In this document: in pieces, positions 11,997 through 24,164 of the stretch | Layout of the letters: each line of letters opens with the position of its first letter | Numbering within the stretch: the stretch's first letter is position 1 | NCBI GenBank assembly: GCA_037176845.1 | Contig: JAYKXP010000091.1 | Coordinates: forward strand, 143,597-207,596 | Length of the DNA stretch: 64,000 nt | From: Paramarasmius palmivorus | Taxonomy: Eukaryota; Basidiomycota; Agaricomycetes; Agaricales; Marasmiaceae | Reading direction: 5' to 3' | Notes under the pieces: generated by a model | Database searches by the model: none | What the model was told of the DNA's origin: nothing | Seen by the model: only the letters and a program-made list of their open reading frames with translations | Position numbers and translations under genes: made by a program

Positions 11997-14377
11997 TATG
12001 AGTGTTAAAGTGTTCAAAAAATAAATATGGTCCCCGGTAATAACTTTTCAATCCCCCGGTAATAATTTACCTACTTTTGTCACATTCCAGTACATTACTT
12101 CCCCCGTAAATAACATAGTAAATCGCCGGTAATAACACACTTCGACGAAACATTCCCCGGTAATAATCGGCTATTTCGGCAACGGGTTTTCCCACGCACG
12201 TGGCCCATGTCGAACACGTCTTGAACGTATCCTCAGTGCTCAGGCAACATGATCTAAGCTCAACTGAGTATGGGATTTAATTCAGGATATATCCAAGTAC
12301 TTGAATATGTAATATTTAGTAGTCCCTGTGGTGTAGAGCATGGACCATAGCAACGTACTTTTGTATGACTTGCTGACATGGACTTTCCCATGCGTGGACA
12401 AGGTCTTTAGCTTCGTTCGGAAAGCTGGTTCACCTCCTCAGCATAGATTACTGGCATATCTGTGTCGTGTATAGTTGTACTATAGCCATCAAACTTGTAG
12501 TATGTACTCATGTCGCATGTCGATCACACTATTTACTGTACGATGCTCTTGCCATTGCTACAGTAGCTCTAAGGAACGGTGTGCATCTGTTAAGCACTGT
12601 ACAGCATAATTGAATAGGGGAGCAGAAATGATATGGGACTTGAATTTATTAGTCCCACACGACCTTGTTTCTAAGGTGTAGAGCATGGCCCATAGCCATG
12701 TACTTCTGTGTGACTTGCTGAAAGAGGCTCCTTTTCCACGCATAAAGAAGGCTTCAGCATCGTTCGGAAGGCTGGCTCACCTCTTGAACATGATGCAATA
12801 GTAAAAGTATCTCATCTTTATTGTTGAGTACTGTTCAGTCACTAATCAATCAACAGTGTTGACCAAGGTTGCCAAAAATTTGCTCTGACAGTGGCTTTCC
12901 CACCGTGACGCTGTCTGCATATCTTCAGCTACATTTCGATAGCTACCCTGCTGCTCAGGCATGATTCGGTAAGGTATAAATGTAGAAATTAGTAAAGAGT
13001 ATGTATCTATACCTTTATATGACGGATTCGGTATCTCTACCTTCACTAACTACAGTAGAAATGACAGGAGGCATGTGGACAGTGTCATTGGGCTCATTGA
13101 TTATTGTTGAACATTCAAGATCATAATCTCATTAATGCTTTAGTCTTATCTTTAGCCTCAAGCAGGTCCTTGTCCACATTCCATTACCTTTAGGCGCCTG
13201 TACTAGCGCTCATAGCAATTTCACTCTTTACTCATTTGTTACTTGTTTACCACCATGTCACCAGAGTACGCTTAGCTTTCTCTAGCTCTCCCTTTTGTTT
13301 TCCAAATATGCACAGGTCATACGCAGCTCTGTGAGGTAAAGTTGACAGGTGGTAGACAAGTTTACATCTGTGGACGCGCCACCTCTGTTTTCAGATGTCG
13401 ATGGTGGACGTTGCAGCTCAAGGAGAGCTTGCATCTTCGCGTTGAAAACATAAGTGCCCACCATGTCGACTTTTTTTCGAGTTTCCTGAGACGCCTCTGA
13501 TTCTCCGATGAATAGATACATGCTGTGAATGGTTTAGGCACTTCATCGTAGCACCTCCATGAGGTTCTGCGTCGATGACTTTCGGAGACATTGTCACAAT
13601 TGCTTAGACTCGATATCACGTCCAATGAAAACAATTTCATCCGATGGATGCTCTTCCCTTGCTTCTCCAGCATTATGATCGATTTCTGTGATTGGCAGTG
13701 TTCCTCGCTCGCTATCCATCTCCAAAGCTCAGACAGTCATCATCTTGGGTTCTAGATCGTTGAAGGCAACTCCTAGGCTGACTCGAATGGTGACAACAAA
13801 CAAAGTGATACCCTAGATGGCAGATTGTTTTAGATATGGATGATTCATAGCGACGGAAGCCCAAGCGTGTACCAAGAGGATCTGTGCATATGGAATTCAT
13901 GAAGTGAACCACGTTCAAGATGCGAGCTGGCTTTCCAAATGACACTGAAGACTTTGTTCATGCGTGGGAAGGTTCCTTTCGGCAAGTGACACAGAAGTAC
14001 ATGGCTATAGTCCATACTCTACACCTCAGGGACTCCTAAATATTGCATATTTGAGTACTTCTATATACCCAAAATCATATCATATACTCAGTGAAGCTTA
14101 GATCATTTCACCTGACCACTGAGGATGTGTTCAAGATGCACTCGATATAGGCCACGTGCGTGAGAAAAGCTTAGCCGAAATAGCCGATTAGCGGGCGGTA
14201 TTTCGTCGAAGTGTGTTATTACCGGGGGGGATTTTGCGTTATTACCGGAGATTTACTGTGTTATTTACGGGGGGAGTAATGTGGTGGAATGTCACAAAAG
14301 TAGGTAAAATATTACCGGGGGGCTGAAAAATTATTACCGGGGACCTGATTTATTTTTTGAACACTTTAACACTCATA
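11997..14377. mobile_element. Non-autonomous DNA element with long TIRs (~2.38 kb)
   Basis: The ends are inverted copies, TATGAGTGTTAAAGTGTTCA at the left and its complement ending at 14377. Inverted similarity continues inwards for about 240 bp very clearly and about 450 bp more loosely (11997-12450 against 13915-14377). Each TIR carries five or six copies of a CCCCGGTAATAA-like motif at roughly 28-nt spacing. A further partial copy of the inner TIR lies in direct orientation at about 12625-12790. The short internal frames (13282-13945, minus) look decayed and I see no transposase. TA occurs at both outer edges, so a TA target duplication is possible. Confidence 0.75.
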
Positions 14378-16994: not shown

Positions 16995-17021
16995 CTAGAA
17001 AGCTACCCGTGCTACGCACGG
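16995..17021 (-). terminator. Helitron 3' end: hairpin plus CTAG
   Basis: A six-base stem with three-base loop (17007-17021) lies eight bases inside the terminal CTAG (16995-16998). In Helitrons this structure is the rolling-circle termination signal. Confidence 0.85.
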
Positions 17022-17083
17022 CACTGAATATACAGAAACAACAGTTCACTGTTCTATTGATTATATATACATCCAATGAGCTT

Positions 17084-18227
17084 TTATCGACCTCCTGTCA
17101 GTTTTTGCCGCTTAGGATTCCGCCTGACATTCTCCAGAGTTCCGTCGTCATCGTCACGAACATCACTTTGAGTAGTTGGAGCTGGGCTAGACTTGCGAGT
17201 GCTGGAGTCAGCATCCGAAAGTGGAGAATACTCGCGTATCTGAGGTTGAGATGTGGATTGTACATCATGCGTGTGTGTGGTAGTTGCGCCAAAGTTGAAG
17301 TTTCCGCGTAATCTACGCCTTCGAGCAGGTAATGGAGCTGGGGCTGTCAATTATAATTAGTTATGATAATTAGTGATTGTAAAAGATCCACATACCTTCT
17401 ACCGTCGGGCGTGTAACTGCCCCCCTACCCAAGAATGGAACCTGCTCCACCACAATGTGAAAACGCTCAGGGAAATGACTCTCGTTCAATGTATAATCCT
17501 TGAGAAATCCTTGGACTTGCACGAATTGATTGGGGATAGTAGGGATAGGTTTTCTGTTGCTCCAGCGATGGTCGTTGGAATCGAAATGAACACGAATGGG
17601 AAATAGACTTTCTGAAGGGCGCTCTAAGGATTTGGAGATGCACCATGTGTACTGGTGAGCATCAACATCGAAGTTCTCAGAAGAGATGTTGATAGCTAGT
17701 CCGGAAACGATGACAAAACATCGTGGATCAAAATCAGTTGGAGGTTCTTCACCGGGAATAGTACAGATCTGTATTTGGGGGTCAGTAAGATGGCTTGGAA
17801 TCAATGAATGATACGCACCCAAACAATGTCACCAACAATCTGATAGCTTGTTTCCTTTAAAGATTCTTCATCCTCCTTGTCTTCAATGATGTTGAATGGT
17901 TGAAAATGACCAGATACACTTCTGGAAACCTATGGGTAGACCGGAGAATCGTCAGCAGCTCTCAATCCAATAACACATTATGGAGAAACCCACCTGAGCA
18001 ATGACTGTGTAATATCCTTTTTCTGGGAAGATAACATTGCCTTGGTTGAAGTAGCGAAGGGATGCAGTGATTGTTTTCCCAGGAGAGATGTAGATGAGCG
18101 CGTCAAAATGAACATTCTGTCCATCATATTCTGGATTTTCGAGACTGCAAAAAGCAATCAGCGTAGCAGAGCCAGAATAATAACTGGAGACTCTTGTTGC
18201 AGAGCTGGAAATCGAGGGTAGAGACAT
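17084..18227 (-). CDS. Helitron-borne protein, candidate OB-fold (RPA-like)
   Basis: A four-exon gene inside the Helitron, downstream of and on the same strand as the Rep/helicase. Exons 18227-17994, 17929-17819, 17768-17396 and 17343-17084 are joined by introns of 64, 50, 52 nt; all phases fit (325 aa). Residues 1-240 or so are compact and beta-rich (FPEKGYYTVIAQVSRS, YQIVGDIVW, CFVIVSGLAINI, FVQVQGFLKDY). This alternation of short beta strands, with QVQGFLKD-like segments, resembles OB-fold single-strand-binding proteins; that is inference from pattern only. The last 85 residues are basic, Ser/Thr-rich and likely disordered, with RRRRLRG and PKRQK. Plant and some animal Helitrons carry RPA-like genes, which makes a strand-binding role during rolling-circle transposition plausible. 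It could instead be a captured host gene. Confidence 0.75.
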
Positions 18228-18270
18228 CAAGTTTGAAGGTTATAGGCCGCTGAGGATGACTGTAGGTGTC

Positions 18271-18294
18271 CTTTATACAGTTCGCTTAGGGTTA
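18271..18294 (-). promoter_or_regulatory. TATA and telo-box-like promoter of the 325-aa gene
   Basis: On the minus strand GTAACCCTAAG (18284-18294) is followed by GTATAAAG (18271-18278), about 45-65 bp before the start codon at 18227. The order, AACCCTAA box then TATA, would suit a pol II promoter. The 189-bp gap to the end of the Rep/helicase gene contains no other obvious signal. Confidence 0.4.
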
Positions 18295-18416
18295 CAGTTC
18301 ATTCGTTTGTGAGAGAAATCTTCGTCAATATTCTAGAAGGCTTCTGCCAGTGTTCAGTACAGTTCTCTCAGTTTTTTGACGTCATTGACGTAGGGAGCTT
18401 GTAGTCGAATCAGAAT

Positions 18417-21400
18417 CTAATTAAACGCTCGAAGTATTTCGGGATAAACTACATTAATAGTTCTACATGGACCCTGATTTGGAGGGAGCAGCACTTTTAT
18501 ACGCTCCTTGCTTGTAGCTCGACTCAAGGCCACATATAACTGACCATGTGAAAATACAGGTATGCGAAGGTCAAGCCCAACAACCTTTACAGACTGTCCC
18601 TGTGCCTTGTTAATTGAAATTGCAAAGGCCAGACGTACCGGGAATTGACAACGGCGTAAACTGAATGCGAAACCCGTAGAAGCTGGTATCAATGCAATCC
18701 TTGGAATGAAAACAATTTCTCCATCATGTTCTCCACCCATGATCTGAGCTTCAATAACCCGTTGGCCAGCCCTGATCACAGTAAGCCTGGTTCCATTGCA
18801 AAGCCCATCTGAAGGTGCCAAATTACGAAGAAGGATGATAGGGCATCCAACTTTCAAGTGGAGTTCACCGGGTGGCAGTCCCGATGCGTCAAGCGAGCGC
18901 AGATATTCCATTGGAATCTCGTCATGAATGCTATCTGCTCCACGCTCAGTGATAACTGAGTCGGCACTGTAGAAAATCAATTCCTCTCCCTCCATACGGC
19001 TGAGGATTTCATTGTTTAGCAGTTCAACATCACAATTGCGGGGAGCAAGGATAATGCGATCAAGGAAATAACCAGGAGATGGAGGAGTCGGTCTGCTGAT
19101 GTCTGGATAGATAGACTCGATAAGTTGATTTGAATCCATGACACGGAGGTCTTCTGGGAGCGCGACAGTCCCGTCTTCTGCAATATTGGTACCGTTTCCG
19201 ATATCCAATAGCCAGCTGGCAAACTCAACTGCGTCAGATGTGCCCTGTTCAAGTCGCATGTTCTGACGCAGCCGAAGCACATGAACATGCTGCCAAAGGT
19301 AGGATTGAAGAAGGGAAGCAGAAATGATGTCTTCACGGGTACCCTTTGGAATGACAGGAAGTGTTTGTTTGGGATCTGCTCCAAGCACGACAGTTTTCCC
19401 GCCAAATGGCCGGGGATCATTACAGATGTCCTGCAAGGTGCGATCCAGAGCTTCGACTGTGTTCCGGTGTTGCATCAGCACCTCGTCCCAGATAATCATC
19501 TTTGTCATGCGAAGAAGATCGGCTCGCTTGCTCTCTTTTGGTATACTGCAAGACGATTGGTCGTTGAGGCCTTCAATGGGTATCTTGAACATAGAATGGG
19601 CTGTCCGGCCCCCCGAAAGTAGTAAAGCTGCTACACCTGAGGAGGCCACACATAAAACAATCCACCCTCGGCTTCGTACTGCATGGGACAACATATTATA
19701 GATGAACGTCTTGCCTGTCCCAGCTGATCCGTCAACAAAGAAGACTGTACCGGTATCTTCAATGACGGAGTTCATGATAGCATCAAAAGCGTCCCGTTGC
19801 TCGGTATTAAAGCATGGGAGATGCTTTCTCAATAGCAGGTGTTCCTGTTCCCGGTTGTAGGCGAGCTGTTCTCGTATGAGAGAATTTTCGGCCTGCGTAG
19901 ACCAATCGTCTTGTGGGAGTGGCATTGGTGGAAAATCTGACAGGCTTGAGCCTGAATGCATGAGGATCTGATTAAGAAGAAACAGCCCATAATCATAGAC
20001 GTCTTCGTCTGTCGGGTTGTTGTAGCCCATCTCTTGGAGTCGAAAATGAAGATCATCGCATATGTAGCTCCGAAACTCTGTCCATAGGGCATCGGGGTGG
20101 GTGGGGCTGCAGAATAGTAGAATAACTGCAAAGAGGTGACGAAGGCGGGAGCCACGTTGCATCTCGCCAGCTTCTCTGAGGCACTGCCTCCATTCGCCAT
20201 CATCAATAAGTAGCCCTCGAGCGATACATGCCTGCCTGAATGTTGGATAGAGCTGGCCATTGAATGTGCGAAGATTATCAAAAGAGGTTGGGCCAGTAAC
20301 CACCGTGAGGAGAGTGCGTAGATAAAAGCGCTCGCCAGCCGTCGGTGATACAAAATACATTCGTCCCAGCGCGAATCCCTCTTTCCTCAGCTTCCACCTC
20401 TTTCGTGCTGGATCCCAGACCATTTTCTGAGGAAACTCCTGGTATGTCAACGTTCGAGCCACATTCCCCAAAGAACCAGTATCTGCATTTGCGTTGAAGA
20501 ACTCTGTCAATGTAGTCCTTTCCGATTGCGCACGTTGTAATACAATGGTCGGATCCTCATTGGGATCAAATACGACCATGTGCTGGCCAGGTAGATGGAC
20601 CTGCAGCCGGACTACATTTGGGACCTGAATTGGATTCTCAGCATGATTATTTATGGTGAACACAGCAGGAAATTACCTGTTCATGAAGAGGAAAATGTAA
20701 ACTTCTCCATATTGCTTCGTGAGGTCCAATATAGCGACCCTGGATGTACTGTGTTATCTCGTCTGTGCCCCACTGTATCGTAGCACGATCGCCTCCCTTG
20801 TGGATGTACTTGAATGGGTATTTAATTGACCTCATCGTTGCGACACACTCAACGTTGATGTGACAATTATACCGAGCAGAAAGATACGGGTTATAGGGAA
20901 CGATCCACCGGTTATCCAACATATGACCCCGAACCTCATAAGCACGGCCGTCATTCCTGCGACGATAGAGGGGGTATCCATCAACGTCCATGCTGGTAAA
21001 TTCCTGGTAGGCTTTAGGGTAGTGTTTGGAACAGTAGCCATCCTGCATGCAAGGAGAATACTGGTTGAGGCGACCACACGGGCCATGAACCATGCATTTC
21101 ATGATGGTTTCAAAGAGGAGTGGTTGAGTATGGGGATCAGGCCATTCAGCACAGATCATTGAGTCGACGTCGGCAGGGGTGAGGAGTTTGTACCCATTCT
21201 TCAACGCAATGAGCAGGTGGTCATGCGGAAGGTTACGTTTCTGAAACTCCGTCTCATAGACGTATGCCTCAGCCTCACCGAAGATCTTGCCATGTTTGAT
21301 TTCATCGAGGAGTTGCAAGAACTTCATGCGAAAAACGCGAGTGACCAGATCAGGTCGGTCATATGATGTTTGACCCGGAAGCAGTTCTCTGGTTATTTCA

Positions 21401-23471
21401 GGCCACTCTGGGTTTGCAGTCATGGTGAGGAAGATATCGATCTTGCGGTAGTAGCGAGCCATTGCCATGGCATCTTGGAATAGCTGCTGCATGTGCCGTG
21501 GGCCCCCAATGTACGATGACGGAAGAACTACACGGCAACCAAGGTCATTGAGACTGATGTTATCATCATGAGACCCAAGTGCATCCTCCAGGCCGCTATA
21601 CAGAGATGCACGCAATGTGCTCTGATTGAAACGTAGGTATGTTAGCCGCGACTGGTCCGCGGCAGCCCACATATCGACGGCGTACTGCTGGAAGAGCTTA
21701 CCACCCCGGAGAATAGTAGACCACTCATCTCGACGGGCATGGAGGCGGAAAGCCGTGTACCGTGTCAGTGACACACGGTGAGGTTGTTGACTATGTGGGT
21801 CCAGCGACTCAAGGTTGTAGTACCAACCATGTTCACCGTATGGAAAGAGTAACACATAGTGAAGAGGGGCATAGGCCGGGTGACCTTCATGGATTCGTTC
21901 CAAGGTGTTATCCTGTCGTCGGAGGATAATATCACGGTGCTCCTCTGCGGTACCGTCACCAGGCAAGATGATTGCGATTTCATTTGCAGTCGGTAGGTTA
22001 TATCGCCGACGGTCTTGGCCAGGCAATACTCGTAGCTTGACCGCATAGTCAGGAACGTGACGATGTTGGGTTAGGATGTCGAAAACCTGTTTGTAGATTG
22101 CTGTATAAGGATGGTATCGGAGGAGCATGTGTTGAAGGCCTTCCATAGTATCGGAGCGCAGATTGCGGTTTCTGTCCATCCGCTCCTTGAGAGCTATGTG
22201 AGGGTCATAGAGATAGAGCTGTGCATATTTTGGGGATTCTCCTGCTGAAGGCAGAAGGGCACCAGAATTGTGGTAAAGTTGCCCTTGGATCCGAAAGACC
22301 CAGCCACTCCGACCATGTCGTCGGGGATCATTGACCTCCGAGTCCACTTTGGCACCAAGAGAAGTGAATGCGAGGGCCATGTTGTATTGACGAATGTTCT
22401 CCCGAAACTCTACACATTGAGCGTCCGAACCTTCTAAAAAGTGTCGAAGTGGTTCTGGTGGTGGTTGAAGTAGTGGGAGCAGAACCTTTCCGCTATCGCA
22501 ACACGTTCCAAAGCGAGGTGATCGTTTAGACGATTTTTGAAGCCGCTCATCCATCCAATGCAGTGCTTTACAGCTCGCACATTCAACGTTCATGTGACCA
22601 AGGTCATGACGTTCATGAGGTTCGTGATATGTGGTTCGGGCAGCATAAAACGTCCTAGCACGTTTGTGGTGACTTCCCAGGTGGGCAGTCAAATCGGTGG
22701 TCTGGCAGGTATCTTGATTATGAGACGTTCGGCAAGCATAGACGTCAGGTTGTTCCCGACGCTGTTGTTGCTGAGAGCCATCGACAATGGGAGATGCAGG
22801 CACTGGGTGTCCCAGTTGTTCGTGGCCCGGAAGCAGTGCCCCTTGTGCGTTAGAGTTCAGTCACCACAAGTCCATAATAAGTCATGATAGCAAACTCACG
22901 ACTTTGTATAACTTGACGTGATTCTCGCTCTCTCCTTCGCCTCTCACGCTGTCCACGTTGTCGCGCACTTAGAACGCCTGTCAAGTAGTATGAGATGATG
23001 TGATACCACGAATAGAGAAACTTGTTACTTGTTGGGTCTTGTGCCGAATGCTGTTGAGTTTGTGTTTTTGCTTGTAATTCCCTTGCACGGCGTGCCTGCT
23101 GGGCAATAGAGCGCGAGCTTTGGGTCGTTGGATGTACTGGCAGCCGAAAGACACTATGGCAAAATATTGGTATATGGCTTGTAAGAGAACAGTGTTACAT
23201 ACTGAAATGAGGATGAATTTGAGGCCAAGTCCCTGTTCGTAAGAGTTTCCAGAGGACTATCAGCAGCAAGCGGCCTATTGAGAAGTTGAGTCGGTAAATA
23301 GGACTGTGTTGTCGAAGGTTGGTTTTGGTCATTGTCAGACGCGGGTGTGGGGAGTAGATATCCTTGAGGGGTTCTTCTACGTCTCTTTGAGGGACTGTCT
23401 TGCAATCCAGAAGTAGTACTGCGCGCTTTAGCGCGAGCATCCTGATAGTAATCTGTAGTAATTTTGTTAAC
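18417..23471 (-). CDS. Helitron Rep/helicase (RepHel)
   Basis: The rolling-circle transposase of the Helitron: an HUH-endonuclease Rep domain fused to a Pif1-family helicase. Exons 23471-23203, 23153-23029, 22977-22900, 22841-20677 and 20624-18417 join in frame (1,614 aa from 23471). The first exon is incomplete and I could not find its ATG. Rep: NLPHDHLLI (HxH, about residue 697) and YPFKY (the two catalytic tyrosines, about 831-835). Helicase: Walker A DGSAGTGKT (about 1176), IIWDEVLMQHR at motif II, LGADPKQTLPV at motif III, and a C-terminal NKAQGQS / YVALSRA pair. The last intron (20625-20676, 52 nt) separates Rep from helicase exactly where two frames would otherwise look frameshifted. 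No inactivating change was seen. Confidence 0.93.
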
Positions 23472-23940
23472 CTATGTATTGGGTATCAGCAACATGAAGA
23501 ATGAACATGTGTATTGTCGCGTACAAAGATGAACCTGAACGATGCCCTGAGCTCTCAGTAGGGTAGTGCTTTAGCAAAACATTGCCGCGACAATGGAACT
23601 GTATCCAGTATCTCGTAGGTATCCACGTGCTCGCGGTAGCCTCAAGCGATGGAAGTTTCGGTCGGCAAAAGTATGACGGGATAAAAAAAAAGTTGGTGTA
23701 TTCGTGTAATTGAGATACTGGATGATCGAGAAGGGCCGAATATGTATTTGTACCATACTATACGCAGGTAATGTAGATGATATTGTGCTATATAGACTCT
23801 GGGGGTGCATCAGCTGAAAAGACTTGAAACCATGTTTATGTTGCATACCATTAGGTACACCCTAAGACAGAATACGATACAAACCCCAGCTGGTCCTCTT
23901 TGATGATGGTAATGCAGAAAGGTGTAGATGTCACGTCACG

Positions 23941-23982
23941 GTCGTTCGGTCAGGAAAGTTTCAACTTTCCAGTCCGAACGAC
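23941..23982. repeat. 42-nt inverted repeat near the Helitron 5' end
   Basis: Outer arms GTCGTTCGG / CCGAACGAC and inner arms GGAAAGTT / AACTTTCC pair perfectly around a two-base loop, with two single mismatches between them. It lies 182 bp inside the Helitron 5' terminus, upstream of the RepHel gene. Confidence 0.75.
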
Positions 23983-24164
23983 GTCACACACGTCACAGGT
24001 CTGAAATGCTGGAAGCGAGGCGGTGCAGGGCGGTGCCAAGGTTTTGACCAGAAAGTTCCCGAAATCACTGGATCTGTTGCATAAAATTCCTTTATTGGAA
24101 ATGTTTATGTCTGAGACAAACGGTCTAGAAATTTCTAAAAGTCCGCCTTTTTTTGTATAGTAGA

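What the first reader, a model, noticed from the sequence alone, without database searches (positions are those of the whole stretch)
17084..18227. Second Helitron gene may be an OB-fold strand-binding partner
A four-exon, 325-aa gene lies between the RepHel stop and the 3' hairpin on the same strand, with its own TATA-like promoter. Its strand pattern resembles an OB fold. RPA-like genes are known on plant and some animal Helitrons; I do not know of a described fungal equivalent with this sequence. It would be a candidate accessory factor for rolling-circle transposition.
Basis: inference. Interest (0 to 1): 0.75.

Follow-up and report, generated by a model that had tools for sequence, protein, structure and literature searches.

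The report
Fungal Helitron's own strand-binding protein gene
A jumping gene of a mushroom-forming fungus carries, beside its transposase, a second gene that selection has kept intact and that is predicted to fold like bacterial single-stranded-DNA-binding proteins, so it may coat the element's DNA strand while it moves.

Summary
On the minus strand, a 325-aa, four-exon gene (18227-17084) lies between the RepHel stop and the 3' hairpin of a 7,170-bp Helitron (24164-16995), whose ends are fixed by a paralogous empty site. The genome is most likely Paramarasmius palmivorus (Agaricales).

It is no chance ORF and no recent capture. The same four exons sit in the same place in 6 of 6 near-full-length copies of this RepHel clade; a seventh, divergent copy has a decayed version, and a remnant lies beside another Helitron 3' end. 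Synonymous sites are saturated while the protein is conserved. Homologues occur in Mycena, Dendrothele and Russula. No Pfam family above chance and no PDB sequence match was found.

Best reading: an SSB-like accessory protein of the Helitron. It works like plant Helitron RPA without shown kinship, and probably belongs with the 'captured' capA/capB genes of Pleurotus Helitrons (sequences not compared). DNA binding is untested.

The parts
16995..24164 (-). Helitron element, 7,170 bp, 5'-TCTACTA...CTAG-3' on the minus strand, inserted between A and T
   Evidence: 98% copy C45 has the same two ends; the two flanks match side by side, without the element, at C91:92666|92667 (by match coordinates, the letters there were not read)
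18417..22860 (-). RepHel: Rep open frame 22860-20677 (start codon not determined), 52-nt intron 20676-20625, helicase 20624-18417
   Evidence: Pfam Helitron_like_N 6e-57 and PIF1 2e-78; HDH and YPFKYIHK motifs; intron read from sequence
17994..18227 (-). accessory gene exon 1 (78 codons; most of the first OB fold)
   Evidence: family model strands
17819..17929 (-). accessory gene exon 2 (37 codons; end of the first OB fold)
17396..17768 (-). accessory gene exon 3 (second OB fold)
   Evidence: finds the relatives in the genome
17084..17343 (-). accessory gene exon 4 with stop codon (low-complexity tail with RRRRLRGNFNF, an acidic run and a basic C-terminus)
18272..18277 (-). TATAAA, 50 nt upstream of the ATG; possible promoter of the accessory gene
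   Evidence: sequence; function not tested
16995..17021 (-). 3' terminal hairpin CCGTGC-GTA-GCACGG and CTAG end
   Evidence: 23 exact matches of the hairpin pattern in the genome against 0 for the reversed pattern

Best explanation
The gene is a standing component of one clade of agaricomycete Helitrons. It encodes a protein of two tandem OB folds plus a disordered, partly basic tail, which most likely binds the single DNA strand that RepHel nicks and unwinds, protecting it and handing it on during rolling-circle transposition. Shown here: the gene, its place, its co-inheritance with RepHel within this genome, and selection on the protein. Predicted: the two-OB fold, for a 42% identical relative. 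Inferred: ssDNA binding, nuclear entry through the basic tail, and the role in transposition.
Against: No sequence-level link to any SSB or RPA: Pfam none, PDB sequences none, hhalign against E. coli SSB not significant (E 0.36). The model of P0001, 98% like the window protein over 91% of it, is weak (pLDDT 54, no Foldseek hit at E<=0.001). OB folds also bind RNA, sugars and proteins. No such gene was found in 17 loci of a second, larger Helitron lineage of this genome, so RepHel may not universally need it. The single-protein searches missed the decayed C237 copy, so very divergent copies elsewhere are not excluded.
Confidence: 0.72

Rival explanations
1. A captured host gene that hitch-hikes with the Helitron, acquired by read-through past an old 3' end, as Castanera et al. 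propose for the Pleurotus cap genes; it does nothing for transposition.
For: It lies between RepHel and the 3' end, where read-through capture would put it (PMC4289320 passages); it has introns; the neighbours of the Mycena, Dendrothele and Russula homologues are unknown here.
Against: Same place in copies whose RepHel differ by about 30% and by 41-53%; kept under selection with saturated synonymous sites; no copy away from Helitrons found by three protein queries, though these are of limited reach.
Confidence: 0.14
2. An OB-fold protein of the Helitron with another job: an adaptor that ties RepHel to host replication factors, an RNA-binding regulator, or a counter to host silencing.
For: OB folds are versatile; besides the SSBs Foldseek lists an editosome protein (4dni, 6.8e-7) and, weaker, POT1 and Teb1; the tail keeps an aromatic position next to basic residues that looks like a binding motif.
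Against: The best matches over the whole two-OB arrangement are mostly SSBs, and ssDNA is the expected intermediate of the element.
Confidence: 0.13
3. Not a functional gene: an artefact of joining exons in a transposon.
For: No transcript data were available here; no Pfam match.
Against: Public gene models (P0001, P0002), conserved introns and purifying selection.
Confidence: 0.01

Closest known systems
capA/capA2/capB genes of Pleurotus ostreatus HELPO1 Helitrons (PMC4289320)
   Same: One gene directly downstream of RepHel in Helitrons of mostly 7.1-7.2 kb; no conserved domain; capB hits beside RepHel in Dendrothele, Fibulorhizoctonia, Schizophyllum and Suillus (Armillaria at a scaffold end); RepHel with introns (section 7; passages).
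   Different: Described as captured genes of unknown function; no fold or role proposed in the text seen. The paper found capA and capA2 to be Pleurotus-specific and capB to have few relatives.
RPA-like genes of plant Helitrons (PHRPA) and of some animal Helitrons/Helentrons (PMC4683698, passages)
   Same: A single-strand-binding protein carried by the element.
   Different: Those are homologues of RPA recognised by sequence; this family has no RPA signature in Pfam and models as a two-OB, SSB-like chain.
Two-OB SSB of Deinococcus-Thermus (1se8, 3udg, 2cwa, 2fxq, 2ihe, 2ihf)
   Same: Two tandem OB folds in one chain; best fold match over residues 29-243 of P0002.
   Different: About 12% identity, no sequence homology detected; bacterial housekeeping protein (recalled), not on a transposon.

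Membership tests
Canonical Helitron (Helitron1) | RepHel with HUH Rep and PIF1 helicase | tested here: met
   PF14214 6e-57, PF05970 2e-78; HDH and YxxKY motifs
Canonical Helitron (Helitron1) | 5' TC, 3' hairpin and CTRR, insertion between A and T without target duplication | tested here: met
   TCTACTA...CTAG, empty site by coordinates
OB fold | five-stranded barrel, strands 1-2-3, (helix), 4-5 | tested here: met
   Predicted, not solved: two in family member P0002 (the strand order was read by me from the DSSP line); weak for P0001
Bacterial-type SSB (PF00436) | sequence match to the SSB profile | tested here: not met
   0 of 16 members; the own-genome SSB search gives two sub-threshold rows on C3, not this gene
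Bacterial-type SSB (PF00436) | SSB-type OB fold, here two per chain | tested here: met
Bacterial-type SSB (PF00436) | ssDNA binding and assembly of four OB folds | not testable with these tools
   needs purified protein
RPA / plant Helitron RPA | RPA family sequence signature | tested here: not met
   Pfam-A, 0 of 16 members match an RPA family; the only matches are two single-member weak ones to unrelated families
RPA / plant Helitron RPA | RPA-type OB arrangement | tested here: inconclusive
HELPO1 cap gene | gene directly downstream of RepHel inside the Helitron | tested here: met
   position in 6 copies; cap genes per PMC4289320
HELPO1 cap gene | sequence homology to capA/capB | not tested
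Captured host gene | a host-locus copy outside Helitrons | tested here: inconclusive
   none found in the 68.3-Mb genome by three protein queries, but these also missed the decayed C237 copy; host loci in other species not seen

The most novel reading that the evidence does not exclude
Fungal Helitrons acquired an ssDNA-binding partner independently of the RPA of plant and animal Helitrons, in the form of a two-OB, SSB-like chain. The 'captured' cap genes of basidiomycete Helitrons are this component, not cargo. Carrying one's own strand-binding protein would then be a repeated solution in Helitron evolution.
Probability: 0.55. Interest if true: 0.72.

Novelty: new variant of a known kind. Interest (0 to 1): 0.62.

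Why it matters
It would turn a class of fungal transposon genes listed as captured and of unknown function into a defined part of the transposition machinery. It would also show that rolling-circle transposons of different kingdoms recruited unrelated strand-binding proteins. The claim is directly testable with one small protein and a RepHel.

Tried and rejected
Chance ORF or pseudogene: rejected by conserved introns and selection. Recent capture: rejected by presence in divergent copies. RPA homologue by sequence: not supported; not excluded by fold. P0001 as structure template: its first 23 residues are read in another frame than the exon-1 start shared by the window, C45, C34 and C15 models, it lacks the first strand, and its model is weak. 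hhalign of the family against E. coli SSB: not significant. A 3'-end pattern with a wrong spacer found 1 place and was replaced by a variable-spacer pattern. dN/dS of the distant pairs cannot be given because synonymous sites are saturated. In the profile, P0017 and P0018 (fragmentary) were left out; A3 also left them out.

Print record: paper searches were 25 of 751 listed; 4 of 4; 30 of 201; 25 of 2,662; 20 of 42; 4 of 4; 1 of 1; 5 of 6 listed. No listed title or abstract start speaks of an OB-fold or SSB gene of a fungal Helitron; only open-licence PMC papers are held, and most rows of the large searches were not listed. Seen: PMC4289320 section 7 in full and passages; passages of PMC4683698, PMC5148889 (no RPA-like genes in Fusarium FoHelis), PMC6213432 and PMC6431247.

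Full report
What is there. The window is contig C91 (143597-207596) of a 68.3-Mb genome. Two database proteins lie on contigs of exactly the lengths of C45 and C32 and are named Paramarasmius palmivorus (taxonomy), so this is most likely that agaric. On the minus strand a Helitron runs from 24164 (TCTACTA) to 16995 (CTAG), 7,170 bp. The 98% identical copy on C45 has the same ends. The two 200-base flanks of the window copy match side by side, without the element, at C91:92666|92667 (88% and 94% identity). This rests on match coordinates; the letters of the empty site were not read. The insertion is between A and T, without duplication.

Inside the element. RepHel is encoded by two open frames joined by a 52-nt intron (20676-20625), with Helitron_like_N and PIF1 domains and the HDH and YxxKY motifs; its start codon was not determined. 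The gene of the finding begins 189 nt after the RepHel stop and ends 89 nt before the terminus. Its four exons give 325 aa. A TATAAA lies 50 nt upstream of the ATG.

Is it real and is it part of the element? I read the gene in the five other near-full-length copies of this RepHel clade (in C45 the helicase is interrupted by an insertion of about 1.3 kb). C45, C34, C15, C32 and C203 all have four exons, introns in phases 0, 0, 1 and open frames of 325-327 aa. Protein identity to the window is 98% (C45), 63% (C34) and 42% (C15), and C15, C32 and C203 encode the same protein. Their Rep and helicase parts are 70.6% and 72.0% (C34) and 70.6-71.5% and 68.8-69.4% (C15, C32, C203) identical to the window's. 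In C237, whose RepHel is 47-59% identical, the gene is present but decayed behind RepHel (first exon piece 1.7e-11); no 3' hairpin of this type was found there. In C1 a weak remnant (E 7e-5, 0.0045) lies directly upstream of a Helitron 3' hairpin. The relic C69 shows no gene, but its helicase similarity breaks off at residue 571 of 751; the C5 locus holds only short helicase pieces and no gene.

How far co-occurrence goes. PF14214 gives 96 match rows in the genome; the 7 with 197-202 bits are these copies (C91, C45, C34, C15, C32, C203, C237), and the next has 138 bits. A local profile found no relative of the gene in 17 loci of the lower-scoring lineage (L027-L043). These loci reach only about 1.5 kb beyond a helicase match that often ends well before the helicase does, one of them (L036) is cut short, and about 70 further rows were not examined. 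Three single-protein queries of the whole genome found no other copy, but they also missed the decayed C237 copy, so divergent relatives elsewhere are not excluded. Of 23 hairpin ends in the genome, 7 belong to the copies with the gene or its remnant; 16 were not looked at.

Selection. Between window and C34, synonymous differences reach 0.77 per site and nonsynonymous 0.24 over 316 codons (0.19 in residues 1-229, 0.36 in the tail). For window against C15 the values are 0.78 and 0.40 over 301 codons (0.33 and 0.60). Window and C45 differ by 8 synonymous and 7 nonsynonymous changes, dN/dS 0.26. The OB region is conserved, the tail is loose.

Other species. A search with a six-sequence alignment found 16 proteins at E<=0.01: one of Paramarasmius, fourteen from nine other named species (seven Mycena species, Dendrothele bispora, Russula decolorans; all agaricomycetes, recalled) and one from an unnamed JGI contig. 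Mycena vulgaris (P0003) came from the search before. The search sees only relatives that share short exact words. The neighbours of these genes are not known here, so co-occurrence with RepHel outside this genome was not tested.

How it most likely works. RepHel nicks the element and unwinds it, and a long single strand is exposed (established for Helitrons; recalled). A two-OB chain of this kind could coat that strand, as Deinococcus-Thermus SSBs do. Among positions picked for conservation of 85% or more, R58, R183 and K188 are kept in 18 of 18 sequences and F60, Y73, F148 and Y155 are aromatic (F, W, Y or H) in 18 of 18, W184 in 16 of 16 with a letter there (window numbering). They are candidates for strand contact; no contact was modelled. 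The tail keeps an aromatic position next to basic residues (F255, 15 of 17) and in the window copy ends in an acidic run and PKRQK; a nuclear signal or partner motif is inference.

Known relatives. Castanera et al. 2014 (PMC4289320) describe capA, capA2 and capB downstream of RepHel in Pleurotus Helitrons of mostly 7.1-7.2 kb, about 45% similar to each other, without conserved domains, with capB homologues beside RepHel in several basidiomycetes, and read them as captured. A 2019 review labels capA-B captured gene fragments (PMC6431247, passage). Position, element size, introns in RepHel and presence in Dendrothele fit this family. Against it: I could not compare sequences, no Pleurotus protein came up, and the paper found capA and capA2 without relatives outside Pleurotus. 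Plant Helitron RPAs are a separate group, recognised by sequence and reported only from mono- and dicots (PMC4683698, passages).

Verdict. A real, conserved gene of this Helitron clade; two OB folds likely; SSB-like strand binding as a transposition partner is the best explanation but untested.

Noticed in passing
window 11997-14377: Element-like stretch with long terminal inverted repeats: arms 11997-12139 / 14235-14377, 143 nt, 91% complementary, plus two inner pairs. Not identified.
   Followed up: partly
L008 3638-4190 and L008 6126-7386: The C45 Helitron copy carries an insertion of about 550 bp between RepHel and the accessory gene, with CTACAGTCATCCT repeated at both sides, and another of about 1.3 kb inside the helicase.
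   Followed up: partly
P0001 (VNI00_010896), C45 copy: The public gene model starts in another frame for its first 23 residues and lacks the conserved start of the first OB fold.
   Followed up: yes
own genome, PF14214 rows at 138 bits and below: A larger second set of Helitron Rep matches, many in open frames of 2,300-2,800 aa; no accessory gene found in the 17 loci checked.
   Followed up: partly
own genome, 16 of 23 hairpin matches: Helitron 3' ends with the same hairpin at places where the protein searches found no accessory gene; possible non-autonomous elements.
   Followed up: no
C15, C32, C203 copies: The C203 copy shares its 5' flank with C15 and its 3' flank with C32, as if recombined or from different haplotypes.
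   Followed up: no
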